Shown here piece by piece: positions 571-45,180 of a stretch of DNA of 64,000 nucleotides. Origin of the DNA: Hirudinaria manillensis (Eukaryota > Annelida > Clitellata > Hirudinida > Hirudinidae); the NCBI GenBank assembly GCA_034509925.1, contig CM067533.1:2744001-2808000 (forward strand). The letters are read 5' to 3'. The notes beneath the pieces were generated by a model. That model saw nothing but the letters and a program-made list of their open reading frames with translations, ran no database searches and was not told the DNA's origin. A program made the translations under genes and the position numbers. How positions within the stretch are numbered: the stretch's first letter is position 1; each line of letters opens with the position of its first letter.

Positions 571-1587
571 ATGGCGATGTGCATGCGTAACTTGTGCTGC
601 TCTTTAAAGACAGCTTTTAAATGTGTTTCATCGAAAAACATAAGTCCCAGATATGTAGCAAGGTGAGCTTCTTGTAATACCTATTCAATAACTTTTGAGA
701 CTAGTTGATGGGTTACTAGGCCATTCCAGTTTGTCTTCTATCTGTGGTTGCATCAGTCTATCAACATGGGAATAATTTATTCTTATCACATTTTTGTTGT
801 TTATATGATTTATTTAGTTTGTAGTATAGTTTTGTTTCACGGTATAGTAAGGACATCAATATTAGTGCTTATCTATTTATGGCTTAAAGGACGTTTTCGA
901 CGACAAACTCTGACGCAACTGGTCGACAGCCTCCTCACGCAAATGAGAAGACCGAGAATGAGGCAATGGAAAAGAAAGAAATAAACTATGATGAACTAAT
1001 TGAAGAGAAAAACAAGCTGTCTGATAAAGTTTTGGAACTGGAGGTAAATTTATCTTACAATACTAATTTTTGAATAAATAGGCATTAGAAAATGTATCAT
1101 GATACATATAGCATTGGTCCAACTGCAGGATAAATACAAAAGAGCTCTGGCCGAGACTGAAAGTGTAAGGCAGAGGTTCAGAAACGAGGTGGAAGAGGCA
1201 AAGATCTTTGGAATTCGAAGCTTTTGCAAGGATCTCCTTCCAGTTGCTGATGTCCTTACAAAAATAAATTCGGTCGTCACAGATGAGGCATCACAGAAGA
1301 AAGATGCTGTTGCCCTTCTGAAGAGTATGCAGGAAGGCATTAAAAGCTTTGAGGCTCAACTGCAGCAGGTGTTCAAACGACACGGTCTCGTCAGGATCAC
1401 TCCTGTGGAAGGCGAAAAATTTGACCCCAAACTTCATCAATCTCTCTTCGAGGTTTCACTCCCAAAGACCGAAGAAGTTTCTGGAAAAGCAGCACCTACG
1501 TCTGGAAGTATCGTGGCAGTAACCGAATGTGGTTACAAGCTCCATGAGGAGACAATAAGGCCTGCTCGTGTAGGAATTTATGAGTAG
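571..1587 (+). CDS. GRPEL1: Mitochondrial GrpE co-chaperone (GRPEL1-like), 3 exons
   Basis: This is the nucleotide-exchange factor for mitochondrial Hsp70 in the matrix, where it releases ADP during protein import and folding. Exons are 571-662, 890-1043 and 1129-1587; phases join exactly to give 234 residues, the usual family length. Exon 1 encodes an Arg/Lys/Ser-rich N-terminus (MAMCMRNLCCSLKTAFK...) typical of a mitochondrial presequence. Exon 2 gives an acidic coiled-coil lead-in. Exon 3 carries the GrpE core: DKYKRALAETESVRQRF, then GIRSFCKDLLPVADVL, a KHG/RHGL-type beta entry (FKRHGLVRITP), FDPKLHQSLFEV, and the terminal GYKLHEETIRPARVGI. Donors GTGAGC and GTAAAT are good; the acceptor at 1128 (CTGCAG) was chosen because it alone keeps frame with exon 2. 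The first exon is assigned on presequence character and phase, so it is less certain than exons 2 and 3. Confidence 0.9.
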
Positions 1588-2371: not shown

Positions 2372-4971
2372 ATGCTGACGAGGCGACGTGTGCCCTTCGG
2401 AACCGCAGATGATAACTTTCTCAATGGATTAAATCCGCCTTTCAATGATGCAAACTTTCATTTGGATAGTAGAGTTAGACCCTCCTCAGCCAAAGATTGC
2501 AACAGAATATCCCTTCAGGACCGTACCGTTGAGTTCCTGTCGGCCATCAGATATGCTCAAACAATAAATGTAAATATCCTTAAATTATCTCATATGATCA
2601 CTTAATTTCATTGCCTTGATTCATTTCATTGATTATGAAGATGTTCTTATTTTTATAGTTCTCTAGTAATAAATGCTACTAGTGCTGAAATCTGTATGAG
2701 GCCTATCCTAATTGTTGCTTCATTTTCAGCCAAGATATAATTCAGCTCCAAAGCAGAAACCGCCACCAGACGAATTCCAAGTAATATCAAGGTGAAGAGT
2801 CACATTATCTTCCTTAAACAATTATAACCAAATGTTTAATATTACAAGTGATGTTAATTGATTCATAATTGTGTCACAACTAATAACCTCATTCTCAAAG
2901 TTGCTGTCATTCTTACATAATTCTTACAAAATATTGCCTGTCAAACATATGAAATGGATTGATTTACTAACTGGTTATTAATTAACTTCTAAGAAATTAA
3001 TCGACTGAATGGAGCACCTAACATATGTAAAATTAGGGATGTTATGATATGGGTCTTATATATAAGAAGTTTTTTAAATGATAAACTCTTAAAAAAATTT
3101 GAAAGTAACTGTGGTGATATAATAACAGAACTACTTTTCATCAATATTTTTTAAACTTAATTTGTATTTAGCAAAATTGGCAAAGATATCAGCAGTACTT
3201 TTGAAAAATTAGAGTCCTTGAATCTCAGTGAGTGCGAGTTAATTAATTTCATTTCGTTTTATTCCATTTATCTAACATTATGCAATTAATCTTGTCTGTC
3301 TTTCGTAGACTTTATTTAGCAGGGATATTTCTAATGAATTAATCAATTTTCAAATCTTTAATCTAATAATTTTAAAACAAGCAGCTCCTTCGAAAAGGTT
3401 TCAGACACGTGTTTTAATTTCAGTCTTGAGCAAGAAACATGATGCTGAGAGCCAAGATGTTGCCAACCAATTGACAGAGATTATAAGGCAGGATCTGAAT
3501 GTGTTAAACAAACAGATCGCTCAGTTGCAACAGGTAAAGTACTGTAAAATATACCTCTATATAATTTTATTATTATTACATAATGTTATTATATAATTTC
3601 ATTACTGTTATTATTATGCAATTTTATTATTTTACACCTGTTTGACATTAATGCATTACATTTTTATGACATCCAGTTCTTAAGACATCAGATGTTCAAC
3701 AGGCAAAGAATGGCTCACTCCAATTCTGTCATTGTTGCGATGCAGGTAATTTCTTTTTCACGAGTCTGTATTTTGTTTTATGATGACGACGATGATGATG
3801 ATGACGACGACGATGACAATGACGTTGAACATGCAATGGCAGTTATAAATGCTTGCCAACGTCTGCAGATGAAATAGATTTTGTTCGGACACTTTTTCCT
3901 ATGGATTTGTTCGAGTTGTTGCAAGCAGACGATTTCATTTTCAGTCAAAACTCGTGAGAATGACAACGGATTTCAAAGTCATCCTTGAATTGAGACAGCG
4001 GGTTTGAAATCTGAGCCAATTTTTTTATTATTATTAAATTTCCAAATGCTTTAATTTTACAATGAAAATATAAAATCACAGTGTGTGTTAAATTATAATT
4101 ATGAATTTTCATTATAAAAATATGACAGTATCAATTGATATTGAACCTAAATGTAGATTATATTCAACTAGAATGTCAGGAACTCACTTAGGACAAACTC
4201 ACAGCAGAACATTCCAGGTATTAAGCAATGTGTCCCGATAATGTTACTTTTGATGAGTTCATTTGCAATTTTCCAATGTAAGAATGTCCAAAACAATTGC
4301 GATGTTGTTGCTTTAGGATACCAATCAAGCAGTTGGAAAGATGCCTCTAATGACACATACAACAATCAGAGTGTCATGCAACCTCGTAGTCAGAGACCAG
4401 TTCAATCCAACTATCCATCACCACCACCACCACCACAACATCATCAACAACAGCAACAACAACCACAACAATCTTCTTTGTACAACCGTCCACTGGAACA
4501 GACCTTCACTGCTCAACAACCCTATCCTATCCAAAGCAACCCGGTGTTCCACTCTCGTGACGAACATGGGCACCAAAGAGGAGGAGGAGGAGGAGGAGGA
4601 GGAGGATACCAACAGAGTCAAGCACTGAGGCAGAGATACGTCCAAGAGGACAGATCGAAAGATGAAATGGTGGAGATCGAGCAGACCATTGTGGAGCTCG
4701 GTGGAATATTCCAGCAACTCACCACGATGGTTCACGAGCAGGGGGAGATGGTGCAAAGGTCAGTTGAACATGGCAGCATGGATTGTGGACTTTAAGCTTT
4801 AGCTTGTCTGTTGTATTTAGTGTGAAAGTGTTTATTGTAGTTATTAATCAAAATGCACTTTGTTACTTCACCTGCATTATGAATTAAATTATGAATTATT
4901 AACAAATTATAACCCAAAACTTAACGAACTCTCTCGACAAATCAATAGCAGTCTCAGAAGCAATCTATCCT

Positions 4972-25204: not shown

Positions 25205-28086
25205 CAAAAAGCACATTCAAAATTCTCTCAGTGCGTCTTCCCTGTTCTCATCGGAACGGTATTTGTTTTGGTCGTGTGTGCCAAAAAGAGGAAATGTTCA
25301 TCGTATCAGGACGTGATGAAGAAATACATTGGACCCAAGTTCAGCAACGTGACCTCTGCTTTCATTGCTTTGTACCTTCTCGGGGCGACCACGTCCTACT
25401 TCGTGGCCATTGCCGACCAATGGCAGCAGTGTTGGTCAATCTGGAATTAAATACTTAATTTGTTTAAAGTCTTATTTATAGTCATTTATTTAGGTATTTA
25501 TGTGATATTTTGAATAAAATTGATAGAGGTCAGAATTAATAATTGACAAGTAATTGGAAGTAAATAAATAAATAAATAGAACATTTTGTTTAAAATATGA
25601 ATGAATATTTCTTAAAAATGAAATTTTTGACACTGAAATGGTCGTTGGTGTCGGATTGTAAATTATTTATCTTATTGTAACATCTAACTATTAATTAATT
25701 AATTATTATTGTTATTTATTAATTAATTAAACAGATTAATTAATTACTTAAGTTTAAAGAAAGTCTCCGCCAACAAAATGGGAACTCTCATTAAAAAATA
25801 TGAGAAATTAATGTTATTGTAATTAATTTTATTGTTTCTTGTAATTCAAGTGGTCCATGCCATGTTACCGGGTCTGGTTGAACCCTTGCCCTGGTACGTT
25901 GATAGGAAGTTTCTCATTTGTACCACTTCTGCTTGTATTATGTTACCTCTCAGTTTGTACAAGAATATTGATTCTCTAGAAATTCCGAGGTGAATTTATA
26001 AATTTATTAGTTTAATTCAACGTTTAAAATTCATATATATTCAATTATAATAATTGCAATGATAACAAATATTTTATTGAAATAAATTTTATTTTATGCA
26101 ATTATAAATTTATTCAGTTATAAAGGAATAATTATACCGAACAATTTCTCAAAATTAATTTCAATTTATATAAAATTCAAGAATCCGAGAATTGATAGAT
26201 TTATAAATTCTTAACAATTTCCCAGTTCAATTGCGTTCGTGGCCTATTTTTACTGCGTGTTTCTCGTCAGCGTGAAGTACTTCACTGGTGTTGATGGTTC
26301 AAAGATTGGAAGTATCGTAACCAAGTTTGTCATCAGATGTGACTGAATAATTATGTATTTATATTAATTTATTATTATGTACTTATATTAATTTATTATT
26401 ATGTACTTATATTAATTTATTATTATGTACTTATATTAATTTATTATTATGTACTTATATTAATTTATTATTATGTACTTATATTAATTTATTATTATGT
26501 ACTTATATTAATTTATTATTATGTACTTATATTAATTTATTATTATGTACTTATATTAATTTATTATTATGTACTTATATTAATTTATTATTATGTAAAT
26601 GTTAATTTATTATAATGAAACTTTTCTTGTACATTCTTTTCGATTAACCTCTTTTCAATTGACAAATTAAGTTAAATTGCAATTGATTCGGCTCGTAAAG
26701 TATTGGAATTAATAACCTTTGAAATATGCGGTGTTAAATTTATTACGTAATAGGAGGGCTGGAAACGGCAATGAATCTGATCTAATAGATTTCGTAAGGA
26801 CTTCTGAGACCATCATAGAACATGTTCATAAGACTTGATTTTGTAGAATTATGTAATTAAAGAATTCAATTACTGATATTTATTTGTGAATTTTAATCAT
26901 AAATGATTAAATTATTTTAAAAAATAAATTTTAAATTATTTTAAAAAATAAATTTTAAATTATTTAAAAAAATAAATTTTAAATAAAAATTAGTCGGAAA
27001 TAATATTTTTCCAGCGCACCGACATTTTACGATGCCATCTCAGTCATTCCAAATCTTGCCGTCCTCTGCGACGTAAAGTTTGATTTTGAATTTAATTTGA
27101 AGTAAATATTTAATTATAAATTGCTTGCTAAATAATTTTATGAAAATACTGATCAGGTTAAAATACTGAAATGGGATTCCATACCATTTGACTGAATAGA
27201 TACCTCATGTAACAATACCTCTTGTAGCAATACCTCTTGTGGTTATACATCCCTTAGTAATACCTATCGTCAAAAACAATATAGATATTTTTTTTTTAAT
27301 TCAGTATCGATTTTTTTAACCACATTATAGTTTTAATAATTAACTTAATTAATTTTAAATAATATTAATCAGTTCCACCTGCAAATCCTGCTCTTGTACG
27401 GAGAACGTGAAAATGGAGGTCATGGATATTTGAAGGCAATTGCCATGACATCATTTCTCAGTTTCTCGTTTTATAATCTCATCGGAATTTTTGGATTCCT
27501 CACTTTCGGTTCTTGCGTCCATGTAAGTTGAGATGGATTAATTAATTGATTGATTGATTGATTTAATGGTTACTTGATTAATTAATTGATTGATTGATTG
27601 ATTTAATGGTTACTTGATTAATTAATTCGCGGTTGTTTGGTCATCAAATTAACAAATAAATATTCAACTTATTTACTAATTAATTAAATTAATTAAATTA
27701 AGATAAATTTAATTTTCTAAAAATTAAGATACTAAAATGATACTGTTAAAATTATTGCAAAGACGAAAATGAAAAGAAAAATAAAATAGCGCCATCTCGT
27801 AAACATCTCTGAAATGCAATATTTTTTGGAATTAAAAATTTATGCGGTCGTTCATTGAACAACGATTTTACATTCAAGAATGCATTATTTATGCTTCAAT
27901 TTTTAAATTTAAATAAGTTTAAATTTTATTTATTAACAATTTATTAATAATTCCAGCCAGATATTTTGCTGTCATACAAACCCACAGCTGAAGTCTTGGT
28001 GGCCACTTTTGGAGTTGCGATAAAACTAGCTCTTGCTTATCCAATCATGTCTTTTGTTGCCAGGTAACAACATCCTTCAATAACAA

Positions 28087-34805: not shown

Positions 34806-37680
34806 ACTACATTTGTTACATTATATTATATTTTTGGAATATTATAATGATATTAATTTTTCTAGTATATATTGACAATGTATTATAATAATGATCCCTC
34901 GACTTCCTTATTATTGAGTATATTATTATTAATGAGAAATAATAATATTGTTATTATTAATATTAAATAATAATTATATATATATAATAATAAATATTAT
35001 TAAATAATAATAATAAATCACGATCGAATTCTGCCATTTTTGGCTTCAAAGTGAGATGAAGGAAAGGGCATGGATTGTTTTATTGTTTCGACAGCAACAA
35101 CAACAACAGCAACAATAACAAAAATATTGGCTGCATGTGATGCTAGGACGCTGTTTCTCCGGTAAATCACAGACATTCCAAATGTCGTCTTTTGATTTAT
35201 GAACCACTCGTCCTGAACAAACATTTTCTCCCTTAACTTTTACGGTCAGTGTCAGCTGCCAAAGACTCTAAATATTCTTTGTTTATTTCAAGAATATAAA
35301 GCAATTAATTACTCTCATTTCAAAGCAAAACGTCTCGGGCCTAAGCACAAAAACATAGCGCTCCGAAAATTCATTCAAATACTGATTCTCGATAATCATT
35401 TATATTTGTAAAACAGATGAAGCGAGTGGTAACATAATGTTAACTTTTCATTCATCGATCTTGCACGTCATCTTAAACTAGGACCTTGAGCACAGAGAAG
35501 GCCAATATTACTAATGGATTTTCTTAAAGAGAATAATGTTTACCTTTTTTTAGTCTGAGAGACTGTGTTTTGTCCGCTGGGATGTCTAGGATGAATGGAT
35601 AGTGGATGGATGAAGGGGAAATAAAATTACGAATCGACGGATTGATGGGTGGACGAGAAAGGATATCTTGAAAAGATTTTGATGAATAGTCTATTTTTTT
35701 TTTTTATAGTATTTAAAAAATTCTGAATGATTGTCAACCCACAATAAAACAAGTTTCGCCAAAAATAATAAAATCAAACGCCTGCCAATATGAAAAACCT
35801 TGCACTGTGTCCACATACGCAGTAACAATTATGAAATCGATTGCCAGCCAGTTGATTTGAAGCTGGGGCTTAAAATAAGATTAACTCGCATTTAGCGAAG
35901 ATAAAAACTCGCCCCACTAGTGAAAACTACGTTTCAAAACGCATCCACATTTCACGGTCTCGCTCTCAAGGGTGCGGGGGTTGCGATTTTTGGGCGTGCG
36001 AATGAGACTCATTTCCCGTCGCGCAAGAGTGACCGTACTTTTCGATTGAAACGAAAACTGTCTTCCAAGGATTGTTCGACGTCTTGGATCTCAATCATAA
36101 TTCGCTGGTCTCCAATGAAGAACCTGAAGAATATAATTTTTTTGACAATTTGTATTGGAGTTGAGAGGAAATTTAAAAATTATTTCAAATTTGCCAAATC
36201 TCACCTCAAACGTAGTAAGGAATTTGTTCGATTCTTCAAGTTTGATTTCAAAACTAACAATTTAAGTTTAGGTCCTCAAATGTCCTTACTTCGAGCGTTA
36301 ATTTTTTAAGCAAGTGGGAACTGCATCCCGGCCGTGAAAAGGTTTTTTTATCTAAAGCCACCAGGAGAGCAGTTGTTGTTGTAGTTATGGAGATTATGGA
36401 CGAAGATTTCGATTCAGTTCGGCGACGTGCTATCAACCAATTATCCGGACTCTGTTTTGAGAGAAGACTTTCAAAACCATAAACGTGCACCTATCTATGT
36501 GCACCTATAAGTATCTCCACGTTAGCCTTGAGGCATTCAGCAATTCTTCAATTATAAAAAATCTCAGCAGACTTATCGGTAAAATTAATGTCTTGCATTT
36601 ATTTTCTAAGAGGTTTTGTTTAATTGGCAACTTTTTGCCTTAAAATCAGATAAATTTGATAATCCACTGATAATTCTATTAAATGATGATTATTTTATTT
36701 ATCTCTAACTTCAGTTTGAAACACTTATTAAGTCAATAATTTTACCTTATAATCAATAACAATAATTGATTTATTTCTGCCATGAACTACGAAAATTGAT
36801 CGGAATCCTTCCTCCATCTGGAAAATATGGCGGTTGCTATACAACTTATGTCGCCAAGTATCTCAAACGTAACAACTAATGATGAATTTTTACCTATTTG
36901 TAAAATATTGAGGGGGCTAGAGTCGAGTATTTGTCAACAATACCCGAGAAAAATATCAGACGCTTTTTAATAAGAAATGTGGTCAAATAAATAAGGCCAG
37001 TTTACCTGATATGCGGTCATCATTCATTAACAATTAAATCCCCACAATTGTTCAACTCAATTTCCTCGAATCAATGTCCGAATGTCATCAGTTTCTCTTC
37101 TAAAACGTCCTTGTAAATAGTATCATCATACTTATCAACGAACAAAGCGTCTGAGAAACTCTTAACAGTCGGGCAGCCTCTTCGCAGACCCCAGAAACAA
37201 TATTGATTTTAAGATCCTTTTTTAAGAGATCCAACAAGATTTTCAATCGGCTATTGATAACACCCCGAGTTTCACATGTTTTGCTTCACTGCTCTAAAAC
37301 TAATTACAAAGAGACTGATGACCAATATCAAGACAACTCCAAAGCGCCAATCATTCTCAGGCATCCTAGCCACTAATGGGGTAGCCAAAATCACCAAGTT
37401 TTATGAAAGGTGTAATGTATCTCGATAAAAAAAACCTCATACCAAATTCAAAACCTAGTCCATGACCAGCTTCAAATACGCATAATTCAAGTTCTCCTTC
37501 CCTTCCAATTTAATATAATAAATATACTTATTATAAATATAATTATTATCGGAAAATGAAAGTCATTTATTCCAAAAGACAAAACAAAACGAATTAAACC
37601 TACAGTTTTCTGCTAAACAACTTCTGACTGGACAAAAAAAATAACACAAAATGATTATGAAAGCCTGACTGTTTCCATAT
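34741..37680. other. Intergenic region with ATT repeats
   Basis: An (ATT)n block sits at about 34770-34802 and AT-rich repeats continue to 35020. A 129-codon plus-strand frame at 35920-36309 shows no domain and is probably chance. Nothing else is supported. Confidence 0.4.
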
Positions 37681-37977
37681 TGTTGGATCCCTAGATCCAA
37701 TAAATTGAATAATATTTAAAATTATATTGCCGATTAATTATTTTAATAATTAATTAAATTTAGTGGCAATATAATTTGAGAATTAAATTGGTGCTATTCA
37801 GACTCTTTGGTTATGTACCTTTGACAAATGGATTTATATCGGAAAGTAGAGCGAGAGTAATAGAAACAGCAGATTTCAAGACTTAATCAATTAAGCATTT
37901 TACATCTTCCAAGCCATCTGACAACGTTCAATAAACCTGACCTTCTATAATTAGTTTGAGGACCCCGGGTTATTACA
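37681..37977 (+). repeat. 5' LTR
   Basis: 297 bases, TG...CA ends, starting with a perfect inverted repeat TTGGATC-CCTA-GATCCAA. AATAAA lies about 50 bases before its end, a plausible polyadenylation signal for the element's transcript. Confidence 0.9.
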
Positions 37978-37978
37978 T

Positions 37979-37997
37979 TGGTGTCAGGAGTGGGATT
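37979..37997 (+). other. tRNA-Leu primer-binding site
   Basis: TGGTGTCAGGAGTGGGATT starts two bases after the LTR and is complementary to CCA plus the acceptor/T-arm end of leucine tRNAs. Confidence 0.8.
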
Positions 37998-38058
37998 TAG
38001 AGTTAAAGGGTATCCAAAAGTAACTAAAGTAGAAGCTTGTTTAGTTGAAAAGTGAACG

Positions 38059-39114
38059 ATGCCGAAGTACTTGGATGAATTGTACGTGCCTCGATTGAGA
38101 CAAGAATTGAGAGAGCGTGGCCTGGATTGGAAAGGCACGAAAGCTGAGATACGAGAGCGACTTGGGGCATGGCTGACAGAGAATGGCCATGACCCAGAGG
38201 AATACGAATTCGAGAATCCATCCCATAAAAAGATGGATGAATTTCTTGATTTTATGAAAAAGTCCGTAGATGAGATGAGGGAATGTATTAGGAGTATTAG
38301 GGGTGATTTGAAAAACAGAACGGTTCCGTGTCAGAATGCCTCTTTGGTTTCTGATGGAAACTCTACTGAGAAGAGTTCTGATGTTCCAAGTACCGTTTCT
38401 GGCAGCATTGGGATGGAGTCATTAGAAGGCACATCCAACCACAGTGCGTACGTGTCTCCAGAAACTCTGTGCGTGATGGCAGACTTAGAGAACTCGACGT
38501 TGGAGCCCATAGAGTTACCAGATCAGGTCGAGTCGTCAGCAGGGCCCAGAGAGCTCACGGAGGTTTTAGTGGAGCAAGTGGAACTTTCGGAGGAGCCTAT
38601 GGGATTGCCGGTGGATCATGTGGAGTTGTTGGTGCAGCCCGAGGAGTTACTGATGAGTCTCGTGGGGTTGCCGGTGGAGCGCACGGATTTGATGGTGGAA
38701 CAAGTAGAGTCTACAGAACAGCCCATGGATTTACCAGCGGATGTTTCGGCTCCATTGGAAATAACAGAAGGGAGCGCTCGGGATTTCAGGAGAGTGCCTA
38801 GCATGGAAAGTGGAGCAGGTGATCCTGAGGAGAGTCTGGGATCTGGCGACATCGTGGAGCAGGAGAGTGTGCATAGAAATGGCGATGTTCCGCGGCTGAA
38901 ACTTGCGGGACGCAGAAGTAAAAGGGAGGAGACAGAAATCCCAGAAGATGACAAAGCAAATGGATCTGGGATTTGCAGCCATGAGATTGTTGGAAGATCG
39001 GATCCTATTCCGAGAGTAAAAATGAAAATGGGAATAGATGTCTGTTCGGGACGAACAGATTTAAGGAGGGGGCAGTGTTGGATCCCTAGATCCAATAAAT
39101 TGAATAATATTTAA
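38059..39114 (+). CDS. SAP-domain Gag-like protein of the LTR element
   Basis: A single uninterrupted frame of 351 codons. Residues 4-40 form a SAP motif (LDELYVPRLRQELRERGLDW followed by KGTKAEIRERL), a helix-loop-helix that in host proteins binds AT-rich DNA and which also occurs at the start of some Ty3/gypsy Gag proteins. The middle is acidic and consists of degenerate repeats of about 12 residues with VEQVE/EEPMGLPV themes; the C-terminal part is basic (RRSKREE, RVKMKMG). No CCHC zinc knuckle is visible. The last codons and stop lie in the 3' LTR. It probably supplies a structural or nuclear-retention role; that is inference. Confidence 0.8.
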   Translation: MPKYLDELYVPRLRQELRERGLDWKGTKAEIRERLGAWLTENGHDPEEYEFENPSHKKMDEFLDFMKKSVDEMRECIRSIRGDLKNRTVPCQNASLVSDGNSTEKSSDVPSTVSGSIGMESLEGTSNHSAYVSPETLCVMADLENSTLEPIELPDQVESSAGPRELTEVLVEQVELSEEPMGLPVDHVELLVQPEELLMSLVGLPVERTDLMVEQVESTEQPMDLPADVSAPLEITEGSARDFRRVPSMESGAGDPEESLGSGDIVEQESVHRNGDVPRLKLAGRRSKREETEIPEDDKANGSGICSHEIVGRSDPIPRVKMKMGIDVCSGRTDLRRGQCWIPRSNKLNNI

Positions 39115-39372
39115 AATTATATTGCCGATTAATTATTTTAATAATTAATTAAATTTAGTGGCAATATAATTTGAGAATTAAATTGGTGCTATTCAGACTC
39201 TTTGGTTATGTACCTTTGACAAATGGATTTATATCGGAAAGTAGAGCGAGAGTAATAGAAACAGCAGATTTCAAGACTTAATCAATTAAGCATTTTACAT
39301 CTTCCAAGCCATCTGACAACGTTCAATAAACCTGACCTTCTATAATTAGTTTGAGGACCCCGGGTTATTACA
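39076..39372 (+). repeat. 3' LTR
   Basis: Copy of the 5' LTR with no mismatch seen. It is followed immediately by the ATAT target duplication. Confidence 0.9.
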
Positions 39373-39935
39373 ATATAATTGTAATGGCCAACACAAATGG
39401 AGATCATTCAATCACATGTTCAGAACTGATGTTGCCAAAATTTGGTGTTGAATAGAAGAAAAAGTAAAAGAAAAACCATGATATGTATGAGAGAGACGTA
39501 TGGGTGGATGGACGGAGAGATGTATGGTTGATTTGCACTTTGAAAACTTGAAAAGTGAGTAAAATGAGCCAAAGTTATGTAGGTTTTATAATATGGAATG
39601 CAGATTTGAGAGTTCAAAAATATTTCAGGATAGATTCAGAAACAAATAAAGTTAATACCTCATGATTTGTAAAAAAAAAATAACAACAGATTCACAGGTG
39701 GGTCTAAAGTAAACAATTCAGATTCTGCACAACCGGCAGTCAGATGTATTTGAACTGAGCATTTTCAGAATATATCGCAATAAATGAAAATGATAATCAA
39801 AGGTCTAATCCTATCCAAAATAAAGATTGTAAGTTTAAATGAAGAAATATAATTTAAAAAAAATATAAACAAAGCTGAGAAATCTTAATTAGCCTAACCA
39901 GATAATCTAATAATAATTAAATAATTAATTAAGGT
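39373..39935. other. Intergenic between LTR element and the unknown minus-strand gene
   Basis: No recognised features; presumably includes the 3' UTR of the minus-strand gene. Confidence 0.45.
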
Positions 39936-42851: not shown

Positions 42852-45180
42852 GCGGTTGAGTCAGACTGATTTTGTAGGTTTATTAGAGACAAGGTGACCG
42901 ATAAACCGATGCAACTCCTCTCCCTAGTATCTCTCCAAGGATTAAAGAAAACAGCTTTATGTACACTACAGTAGCCCCCCTTTCGAGTCATTTGAGACGG
43001 AACGAGGAGATGACCTCTGAGAGTAACTAATGTAGCCTGGGTTAGTGCGGAATTGCGCAAGTTGCCCTGCTCTCACGCGAAGGGGTTCAGTGTTCTCGGG
43101 TGAAGGCGTGGCCTTGTTGAGTGTCTGCAATGGCTTCGTTGTTGACTCAGGGTCTCTGATGGCAGGGTTGAGAGTTTGATGAGCTCCCTTGACGGTCAAG
43201 CTGTCAGGCAATTAAATCTTGACTATGTTTCCCTTCATGTCCAAAACCTTAAAAGAGCCCTTTTTAAAGGGCTTCTAATGGCTGCCTGACGCGGTCGATC
43301 AGAAGACAGACATAGTGGCCAGGCCGCAATAGAGCAATGTGGGGCGGAATTTTCGGCCTTGGGGAAAGAGTCGTGAAATCCAATTGGCGCATGTTACCGC
43401 GTAAGTGTTTGATGGCCTCCATTTGCTCTTTGGTGGAAGGGTTTGTCTGATGGAAGAATACGTGGGGCGTAAGAATAAGGTAAATAGGGAATAACTGTGT
43501 TCAGTCTTAGAGTCCTCGGCGCCAAACAAATCACTAACAAAAACCGTCTCACAAGATTGTGAGATGAAAACGTTCAATCATTACATTAGATTGGGAGTTA
43601 GGTAAGCATCAGTACGCAGATGGTGAGAACTAATGGAGTGAGGTAGGAAAAGACTGCTTTCGAAATGTCGGCATGATATGTGGTGAAACACAATGTTGTG
43701 CCAAACTTGCTAATCCAATGGGTTAGGAAAACCTCGTCTATGCATTTGCAATAAATGATTGATGGGGGATATCTGGGCGCATCCAAACTATCGAGTTGCT
43801 GTCAATGAACGTCACAACATATAGTGCCTTAGAGGTGAATACTCATCCAAGTGTTTTTGAGGTTTGAAGGATCCAACAATGTCCTTGTGAACAGACTGGA
43901 ATCGATCACTGATCGGGTACTTAGGTTGTTGTGGATTGTTCTTGTTGTGACGAATGACTTTGGTTTTCTGACAGTTCAACCAGTTGTTTATCCATTGTTT
44001 GATATCCCCTTTCATTTTAGTCTCAAAATAACATGCAGCAATCGACGTTATAGAACCTTTAATGCCTGGGTGTGCTAATAAAGGAGTTTGAAAACTGATT
44101 GCCAGTGGGCCCTTAAGAAAAAGTGGATGGAGGTAGCAGGAAGTGTTCTCACACAATATCGTCAGCTCTGGAGATAATTGGTATGTGGTGAGTGCTCTCT
44201 TACTTTTGAGCGGATTATCAATTTTCCATTTGACGATCCTGGCAAGGTCTGGGCAATCCAGATGTAAGGAATTACCCGCTCTTGAAACCGTGTCTAATCT
44301 ATATTTTCAGCCGATCCGTGACAGAAATGATAAACGTTGTCGTCGCTGCTGAGTGTGTATCTTTTGATCCCTGTTGGATTGAAAGGCTTGACGCAAGAGT
44401 TTATGATTTTTGAATGGGTGGACAACCCTGCCTCCAGCAATGTGTTTGAAATTTAGGATGGTTGAGTATACCGCCAGCAGTTTTCTAACAAAAGCCGAAT
44501 ACGTTAATTGTTATTTAAACAATCTTTTTGAATAAAAACCATCCGGTTGGGGTTTACCCAAAACGACTTGCACCTATGTCAAATGATGGTACATCAGTAA
44601 CCAGGTGATACTGTTACTGATGTTGCTGACTTAATGAAGGTTTAATGTACTGAACCTCTCTGCTTTGGTGAACTTCTCACGTCAATTGGTGGTTGCGTTG
44701 ATTTGTCGTGCCTAGGTATAGAAGGGTTATAGATATTTGAGCAAATTGTGGTATGAACAGTCGGGATCAACCTTTGGGAAATTTAGATATAATTTTGGAT
44801 GCTAAAACGCGTGCGAGTGAATTCGAATAAGCCTGACTGCCACTGCCGTTTTTGAAATGTCAGAAGGATGAATCAGGATGTTGTACTAAGTCTTTACCGA
44901 ATGAAGTTTGCTGAAGACGATGGGCAACTTTTTATTAAGAGGTTGGCATTGACCGGTTCACAACTACGGCCTCGAGCAGGTCGTAATCTAGTTGAAGGTT
45001 GAAGGGAGTGGTTTTACAGCGATCTCTGAGGTCTCCATGTCAGAGTGATGAACAGCTTCGCTGTAAGCAATGTCGGATTCAGCGGTGACGCGATTGAGTC
45101 AGACTGATTTTTTATATTTACTCGAAACAAGATGGCCGACTTACAAGAACAACTCTCCCTACTATCTCTCCAAAGATAAT
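42852..45180 (-). mobile_element. Decayed Ty3/gypsy LTR retrotransposon
   Basis: Read on the minus strand, broken frames carry RNase H remnants at 44.4-44.65 kb (an LVTDVPSFDIGASRFG-like stretch, then a degraded motif region). Next comes an integrase zinc-binding domain at 43.81-44.16 kb (LLAHPGIKGS, then WINNWLNCQKTK with H and CxxC-type positions). The chromodomain-less end of pol follows at about 43.2-43.4 kb (LLRPGHYVCLLIDRVRQPLE then FKVLDMKGNIVKI). Direct repeats of about 90 bases at 42852-42942 and 45091-45180 share TTGAGTCAGACTGATTTT and look like LTR remnants. Frameshifts and stops are frequent, so it is a dead element; only fragments of reverse transcriptase, if any, remain. Confidence 0.75.
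43812..44156 (-). pseudogene. Integrase fragment of the decayed gypsy element
   Basis: The longest surviving frame of the element. It holds the His-Cys zinc-binding part (HPG...NWLNCQKTK) and the beginning of the catalytic core (SDRFQSVHKDIVGSF, where the catalytic Asp is expected in the D-I-V-G position). The frame ends before the rest of the DDE triad. Confidence 0.7.

What the first reader, a model, noticed from the sequence alone, without database searches (positions are those of the whole stretch)
37681..39372. Young non-autonomous LTR element coding only for a SAP-domain protein
297-base LTRs without a visible mismatch, ATAT target duplication, tRNA-Leu primer site and polypurine tract show an intact, recently active element. 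Its only gene encodes a SAP motif plus acidic repeats, with no zinc knuckle and no pol. Gag-only elements (TR-GAG type) are known in plants; an animal version keeping a DNA-binding SAP protein under an open frame may be an undescribed family. The protein may help the parasite's particles or target it to AT-rich chromatin.
Basis: partly seen in the sequence, partly recalled or inferred. Interest (0 to 1): 0.7.

Follow-up and report, generated by a model that had tools for sequence, protein, structure and literature searches.

The report
Retrotransposon parasite keeping Gag's SAP domain
A short jumping element in an animal genome carries no enzymes of its own, most likely copies itself with the machinery of a full-length relative in the same genome, and still codes for a small protein built on the DNA-binding head of that relative's coat protein.

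Summary
Window 37681-39372 is an intact LTR element: 297-nt LTRs identical, ATAT duplication, tRNA-Leu-type PBS, polypurine tract, one 351-aa ORF with a Pfam SAP domain, no pol. It is no lone deletion: 116 related places were scored, and of 20 exact junctions examined on contig C1, 9 keep the whole frame.

The partner asked for exists: a 5.5-kb Gypsy element whose Gag also begins with a SAP domain, followed by a coiled-coil-like stretch, zinc knuckle, PR, RT, RNaseH and IN. Window element and partner share the first 12 LTR bases, the PBS, a 33-nt PPT block read in different frames, and 4-nt target duplications centred on TA. One chimera joins short-element U5 to the partner's leader and Gag at the PBS, as reverse transcription of two co-packaged RNAs would give.

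So it is a non-autonomous element mobilised by a SAP-Gag Gypsy. Its protein keeps Gag's SAP and helix plus an acidic, probably disordered tail; constraint within the family is weak. Wheat Quinta/Cereba is the closest printed parallel (PMC11302176). New variant of a known kind.

The parts
37677..37680 (.). left copy of the 4-nt target duplication, ATAT
   Evidence: sequence
37681..37977 (+). 5' LTR, 297 nt, TGTTGGATCC...TTATTACA
   Evidence: 297/297 identical to the 3' LTR
37719..37777 (.). AT-rich inverted repeat inside the LTR (29-nt arms, 79% complementary)
   Evidence: repeated at 39114-39172
37979..37998 (+). primer binding site, complementary to the 3' end of a tRNA-Leu-type gene with one G.U mismatch; identical in the partner copies shown
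38059..39114 (+). ORF, 351 aa: SAP domain (residues 7-35), long helix (56-85), acidic tail predicted disordered; stop in the 3' LTR
38059..38226 (+). SAP region, homologous to the N-terminus of the partner's Gag (alignment of 42/88 identical residues, E 7e-21, extends to about residue 85)
38579..38731 (+). acidic repeats with 21-nt (7-aa) spacing, six copies in register
39042..39074 (+). 33-nt block with palindrome TGTTCG-GGA-CGAACA and polypurine tract; identical to partner copy L027, where it is read in another frame
39076..39372 (+). 3' LTR, 297 nt
39373..39376 (.). right copy of the target duplication, ATAT
   Evidence: sequence

Best explanation
It is one copy of a young, high-copy family of non-autonomous LTR retrotransposons that is mobilised in trans by a Gypsy element of the same genome whose Gag begins with a SAP domain. 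Its RNA is taken into the partner's particles, primed by the same tRNA, copied by the partner's RT/RNaseH (shared PBS and 33-nt PPT block) and inserted by the partner's integrase (shared LTR start and target preference). The ORF is a reduced Gag head, SAP plus helix, on an unrelated acidic tail; most likely it joins the partner's Gag through the helix and favours packaging or nuclear/chromatin delivery of its own RNA or cDNA, without being able to build a particle alone. Shown: shared signals, partner with complete domains, one U5/interior chimera, common target preference. Inferred: co-packaging as the source of the chimera, and every step that involves the SAP protein (I put its having any role at about 0.5).
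For: Partner: five complete copies of 5487-5595 nt in the fetched loci, LTR pairs identical in 4 of 5; one frame of 1674 aa in L027 and 1644 aa in L032; Pfam on four pieces of the L027 frame gives SAP E 1.2e-11, zf-CCHC, aspartyl protease, RVT_1, RNaseH, H2C2, rve, p58_C. 33/33 identity at the PPT against 9, 10 and 7 of 30 in the three 30-nt steps upstream, read in a different frame in the partner. Target duplications: NTAN in 16 of the 17 short copies with a perfect 4-nt duplication (of 19) and in the 4 partners with one (of 5), against 8.9% of window 4-mers. Chimera L058: 60 bases of LTR end plus PBS region identical to the window element, then the partner's leader and SAP-Gag start, RT match with a 1479-aa open frame 2.6 kb downstream; 1 exact place in the genome. 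SAP frame: pS 0.73 against pN 0.26 between element and partner.
Against: No expression, particle or mobilisation data. LTR interiors of the two are largely unlike; [quoted passage not shown] Within the family the constraint is weak: 199 nonsynonymous changes against 214.4 expected (50 of 2000 placements as low), none detectable at residues 57-110. Of 20 C1 copies examined, 9 have a broken or altered frame and 2 are truncated. The chimera rests on one clear copy; its U3 could not be read. The pS/pN contrast could reflect divergence between two autonomous lineages before the short element lost pol. More than one Gypsy lineage carries the 33-nt block (L030), so the partner may not be unique.
Confidence: 0.82

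Rival explanations
1. The ORF is a passenger: the element spreads by its RNA signals alone, and frames look intact only because the copies are young.
For: 12 of 19 complete copies have identical LTR pairs; overall constraint weak and absent at residues 57-110; 11 of 20 C1 junction copies examined lack the whole frame.
Against: SAP region and tail both lean to fewer amino-acid changes (20 against 24.3; 102 against 112.9), though singly not strong; intact frames that differ by many length changes in multiples of three exist, but these frames were chosen for being open; the 16 SAP-only SAP domains compared split from 6 Gag ones by a branch of support 1.000 and are still recognisable SAPs.
Confidence: 0.35
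2. The element is a recent simple internal deletion of the Gypsy partner.
For: Same start of LTR, PBS, SAP start and PPT end.
Against: LTR interiors differ; the ORF tail has no DNA match in the partner beyond the 33-nt block and no protein match in L027, L038 or L030, the Gypsy loci without a short element; SAP identity is 48% over 88 aa, and diverged SAP-only copies exist.
Confidence: 0.04
3. The SAP protein is an antagonist: a Gag fragment that poisons or regulates the partner's particles, as truncated Ty1 Gag does in yeast (recalled).
For: It keeps the likely multimerising head of Gag without the zinc knuckle or the rest of Gag.
Against: An inhibitor would also harm its own spread (argument, not a test); no test made.
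Confidence: 0.1
4. The chimera at C3:10941600 arose by DNA recombination or gene conversion between integrated copies, so it says nothing on co-packaging.
For: The switch lies in a stretch of about 26 bases identical in both elements, so a short crossover is possible; a single clear copy.
Against: The switch falls at the PBS, where first-strand transfer between two RNAs would put it (general knowledge); shared signals point the same way.
Confidence: 0.25

Closest known systems
RLG_Quinta / RLG_Cereba, Triticeae (PMC11302176; abstract and section 5 read)
   Same: Non-autonomous partner with one ORF made of a Gag-related part plus a domain of unknown origin; PBS, LTR termini and PPT shared with an autonomous Gypsy in the same genome.
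   Different: Quinta keeps a Gag domain and the second half of its LTR; here only Gag's SAP head and helix remain, LTR interiors differ, the host is an animal and the Gag carries a SAP domain.
RLG_Sabrina / WHAM / Wilma complex, wheat (PMC9744471; passages read)
   Different: Plant, much longer elements (6.6-8.3 kb for Sabrina), Gag-Pro or unrelated short proteins in place of a SAP head.
Non-autonomous pararetroviruses of grasses (PMC5491270; abstract read)
   Same: Defective partners that share regulatory sequences with autonomous ones, homogenised by recombination.
   Different: Plant viruses, no LTR retrotransposon; here homogenisation is only suggested, by the 33-nt block and one chimera.
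TR-GAG elements of plants (search listing only; definition recalled)
   Same: Short LTR element coding for a Gag-related protein only.
   Different: The ORF here has no zinc knuckle and no part of Gag beyond its head.
TRIMs, including Helenus and Ajax (PMC10886601; abstract read)
   Same: Short non-autonomous LTR elements, some in animals; 4-nt duplications in animal Helenus.
   Different: TRIMs are non-coding (recalled); Helenus and Ajax carry small-RNA-derived sequence in the LTR.
HeT-A / TART of Drosophila telomeres (recalled)
   Same: An animal element coding only for Gag and dependent on another element's RT.
   Different: Non-LTR elements, full Gag, telomere role.

Membership tests
Non-autonomous LTR retrotransposon | Two LTRs, target duplication, PBS and PPT | tested here: met
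Non-autonomous LTR retrotransposon | No protease, RT, RNaseH or integrase coding | tested here: met
   Pfam on the long ORF up to E 1: SAP and a sub-threshold SAP-like family alone; internal region 1098 nt
Autonomous/non-autonomous pair by the wheat criteria (PMC11302176, section 5) | Identical PBS | tested here: met
Autonomous/non-autonomous pair by the wheat criteria (PMC11302176, section 5) | Identical LTR termini (integrase sites) | tested here: inconclusive
   first 12 nt identical; last 8 nt TTATTACA against TTACAACA, 6 of 8
Autonomous/non-autonomous pair by the wheat criteria (PMC11302176, section 5) | Second half of the LTR strongly conserved | tested here: not met
   alignment with the L027 LTR shows only short shared stretches such as CAATAAA and GACCCC
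Autonomous/non-autonomous pair by the wheat criteria (PMC11302176, section 5) | Only one autonomous family in the genome fits | tested here: inconclusive
   L030 holds a Gypsy copy with another LTR start and the same 33-nt block, so more than one lineage may serve
TR-GAG (definition recalled) | ORF codes for Gag (capsid part, usually with zinc knuckle) | tested here: not met
   no zf-CCHC or other Gag match in Pfam; similarity to the partner's Gag ends near residue 88; model, of low confidence, shows no folded part after the helix at 56-85
Ty3/Gypsy (the partner) | Gag-PR-RT-RNaseH-IN order in one element with LTRs | tested here: met
   no RT tree was made
SAP domain | Score over the Pfam gathering cut-off, two helices | tested here: met
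   28.5 against 23.9 bits; helices 2-19 and 28-41, block pLDDT 79-82 over residues 11-40; solved SAP chains 1zrj E 2.2e-5, 2kvu 2.3e-4, 2do1 2.7e-3

The most novel reading that the evidence does not exclude
The short element is semi-autonomous: its SAP-helix protein co-assembles with the SAP-Gag of the Gypsy partner and acts as an adaptor that steers short-element RNA into particles or tethers the incoming cDNA to chromatin. It would be a long-lived animal system in which a parasite keeps only the head of Gag as a tool, with a recombinant between parasite and host element caught in the genome.
Probability: 0.3. Interest if true: 0.72.

Novelty: new variant of a known kind. Interest (0 to 1): 0.5.

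Why it matters
It gives an animal counterpart to the wheat autonomous/semi-autonomous pairs, with the pair identified by shared signals and one recombinant. It shows which bases the partner's machinery is likely to need (12-nt LTR start, PBS, 33-nt PPT block kept in spite of a different reading frame) and asks a testable question: why does a parasite that seems to need no protein keep the SAP head of Gag? A Gypsy Gag that starts with a SAP domain is itself something that the listings of my paper searches did not show.

Tried and rejected
Considered and rejected: a bare internal deletion; a TRIM without coding (an ORF is present); L049 and L050 as a third, ORF-less kind (they are truncated copies); chance likeness (506 places with the LTR-end/PBS pattern, reversed control 0). 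An origin of the acidic tail in the partner: no match in the Gypsy loci L027, L038 and L030; its source remains unknown. Host identity: 59 Wnt matches, by my count in about 17 clusters, mean an animal; Chitin_bind_4 found nothing, but its control rang nowhere, so 'not an arthropod' is only a hint. A ctenophore host, guessed from contig number, was dropped after the Wnt count (recalled that ctenophores have few). A first tRNA pattern found nothing. ARAGORN without introns found no tRNA in L045. A SAP alignment with rows out of register (three, one) was redone. The second match (C12:3077114, one mismatch) is more likely a partner copy with one change and is not counted as a chimera. The 27- and 56-codon frames were left out of the selection counts, which used intact frames only.

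Sampling caveats: the 116 scored places are the best of 907 candidates and lean to intact frames; their frame lengths are the tool's figures, and most of them were not read. The 19 complete copies were fetched for likeness to the window or. The counts overlap, since the two LTR ends differ at two bases and two mismatches were allowed. The chimera was found by comparing by eye the 100 exact places listed (C1-C7 only) with the 150 RT places scored (of 1478 candidates).

Full report
1. Observation. The element at 37681-39372 is as described: LTRs of 297 nt identical throughout, ATAT duplication on both sides, PBS one base downstream of the 5' LTR, one ORF of 351 aa with a SAP domain over the Pfam cut-off, and a purine tract at the 3' end. 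The internal region is 48% GC against 33% for the window, and its longest ATG frame in 2000 base shuffles is 164 aa. The ORF runs through the PPT into the 3' LTR.

2. Copies. The window lies in a 148.4-Mb genome of 23 contigs. An LTR-end/PBS pattern with up to 2 mismatches occurs at 506 places (231 forward, 275 reverse; reversed control 0); this number includes part of the partner family. A protein search scored 116 of 907 candidates and reported many open frames of 341-456 aa. In the fetched loci 19 copies have two LTRs (the window copy is one of them); 12 of the 19 have identical LTR pairs and 17 of 19 a perfect 4-nt duplication (two further rows of that output pair LTRs of different elements and were dropped). 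For a sample less tied to intactness I took the 24 exact junctions of contig C1 listed and could examine 20, four of them only through the frame lengths: 9 keep the whole frame, 9 have a broken or altered one (two of these, L056 and L057, have a rearranged SAP start but a long open frame), 2 are truncated elements. The family is young and many copies still code, but defective copies are common.

3. The partner. Loci chosen for RT hits or for nearness of RT and SAP matches carry a 5487-5595-nt element with LTRs of 217-235 nt (five complete copies; LTR pairs identical in 4 of 5). Gag and Pol form one frame in L027 (1674 aa) and L032 (1644 aa), lie in two overlapping frames in L028 and L038 (473 or 451 aa and 1229 aa), and are interrupted in L033. 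Searched in four pieces, the L027 frame holds SAP, a coiled-coil-like stretch (sub-threshold Pfam matches), zinc knuckle, aspartyl protease, RT, RNaseH, H2C2, integrase core and p58_C. The short element's protein aligns with its N-terminus at 48% over 88 aa, E 7e-21, with no significant match beyond. The acidic tail has no match in L027, L038 or L030.

4. Shared signals. The first 12 LTR bases, PBS and some bases beyond are the same in both. A 33-nt block ending in the PPT is identical between window and L027, and identity falls to 9, 10 and 7 of 30 in the three ungapped steps upstream; a few other copies differ from it at one base (L033 partner, L039, L046). In the partner a stop codon lies inside this block, in another frame, so shared protein coding cannot explain the identity; it looks like a signal kept at nucleotide level. 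It contains the palindrome TGTTCG-GGA-CGAACA. A Gypsy copy with another LTR start (L030) has it too. A PPT-LTR pattern with up to 2 mismatches occurs at 455 places, 74 of them exactly of partner type; of the 26 one-mismatch rows listed, all on C1, 24 are of the short-element type. Perfect target duplications have TA in the middle in 16 of 17 short copies and 4 of 4 partners, against 8.9% of window 4-mers.

5. Chimera. One exact LTR junction of the short type on C3 lies 2.6 kb upstream of an RT match with a 1479-aa open frame. Its 301 fetched bases have 60 consecutive bases (LTR end and PBS region) identical to the window element, then the partner's leader and SAP-Gag start; over the whole stretch it aligns at 90% of 295 columns to L027 and 70% of 306 to the window element. 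The exact 41-base junction occurs once in the genome. From general knowledge of reverse transcription, U5 from one RNA and the interior from another is what first-strand transfer between two co-packaged RNAs gives. U3 could not be read, so DNA recombination remains possible.

6. The protein. AlphaFold2 on a ten-row alignment gives two SAP helices and a helix at 56-85, with nearly everything from residue 86 on below pLDDT 50 (mean 43, low confidence overall). No capsid-like fold appears. The SAP matches solved SAP domains of E1B-AP5, MKL1 and Hcc-1 by sequence. Constraint: pooled pN/pS over 13 intact frames is 0.36 for residues 1-56, 0.72 for 57-110, 0.53 for 111-335. By parsimony on 15 intact frames, 199 nonsynonymous changes against 214.4 expected (50 of 2000 placements as low); SAP 20 against 24.3 (107 of 2000), 111-300 102 against 112.9 (72 of 2000), 301-end 4 against 7.4 (44 of 2000, but the PPT block overlaps it), 57-110 73 against 71.2 (1428 of 2000). 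Between element and partner the SAP has pS 0.73 and pN 0.26. The 6 Gag SAPs split from all 16 SAP-only sequences compared with support 1.000, three diverged copies included. This fits an old lineage with a weakly to moderately kept SAP, but part of the divergence may predate the loss of pol.

7. Comparison. The wheat pair Cereba/Quinta (PMC11302176, abstract and section 5 read) is the nearest printed case: shared PBS, LTR termini and PPT, with a short partner coding for Gag plus an unknown domain. Here only the head of Gag is kept and most of the LTR has diverged. Recombination-driven sharing of regulatory sequence between defective and autonomous partners is described for plant pararetroviruses (PMC5491270, abstract). 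Four searches of the paper library for SAP with gag or Gypsy terms listed no paper that by its title or abstract start describes a SAP-bearing Gag (one, one and two papers, not opened; 20 of 154 listed, none of them holding 'SAP domain'). Repbase and subscription journals were not searched.

8. Verdict. Observation confirmed; interpretation partly supported; a non-autonomous family with an identified likely partner. The mobilisation model is well supported by sequence, the protein's role open.

Noticed in passing
L045; G000 C1:4489177 onward: Tandem array of a tRNA gene with an intron (I read tRNA-Leu CAA), mostly 246-bp spacing; 324 minus-strand matches and 1 plus-strand match in the genome, the 100 listed ones all in one stretch of about 25 kb. 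Its 3' end fits the PBS of both elements.
   Followed up: partly
L030 (33-nt block at 2812-2844, minus strand): A Gypsy copy with a different LTR start (TGTTATAACCC) ends in the same 33-nt PPT block: a further lineage sharing the signal.
   Followed up: partly
L027 and L032 against L028 and L038: Two arrangements of the partner: Gag and Pol in one long frame, or in two frames overlapping by about 85 nt with a 1229-aa Pol frame, a length that recurs among the RT places. Mutation or a frameshifting subfamily was not decided.
   Followed up: no
L056 and L057 (C1:9073119 and 9074866): Two short elements about 1.75 kb apart with the same rearranged SAP start, which suggests a local duplication or a tandem of elements.
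   Followed up: no
window 37719-37777 and 39114-39172: AT-rich inverted repeat with 29-nt arms inside each LTR.
   Followed up: no
window 43812-44306, minus strand: Fragment with an integrase H2C2 zinc-binding match, E 1.2e-5, probably a remnant of another retroelement.
   Followed up: partly
window 1078-1587, plus strand: Frame matching the GrpE co-chaperone family (PF01025, E 4.3e-34).
   Followed up: no
window 26350-26617: 24-bp AT-rich tandem array, 11.2 copies, 97% matches.
   Followed up: no
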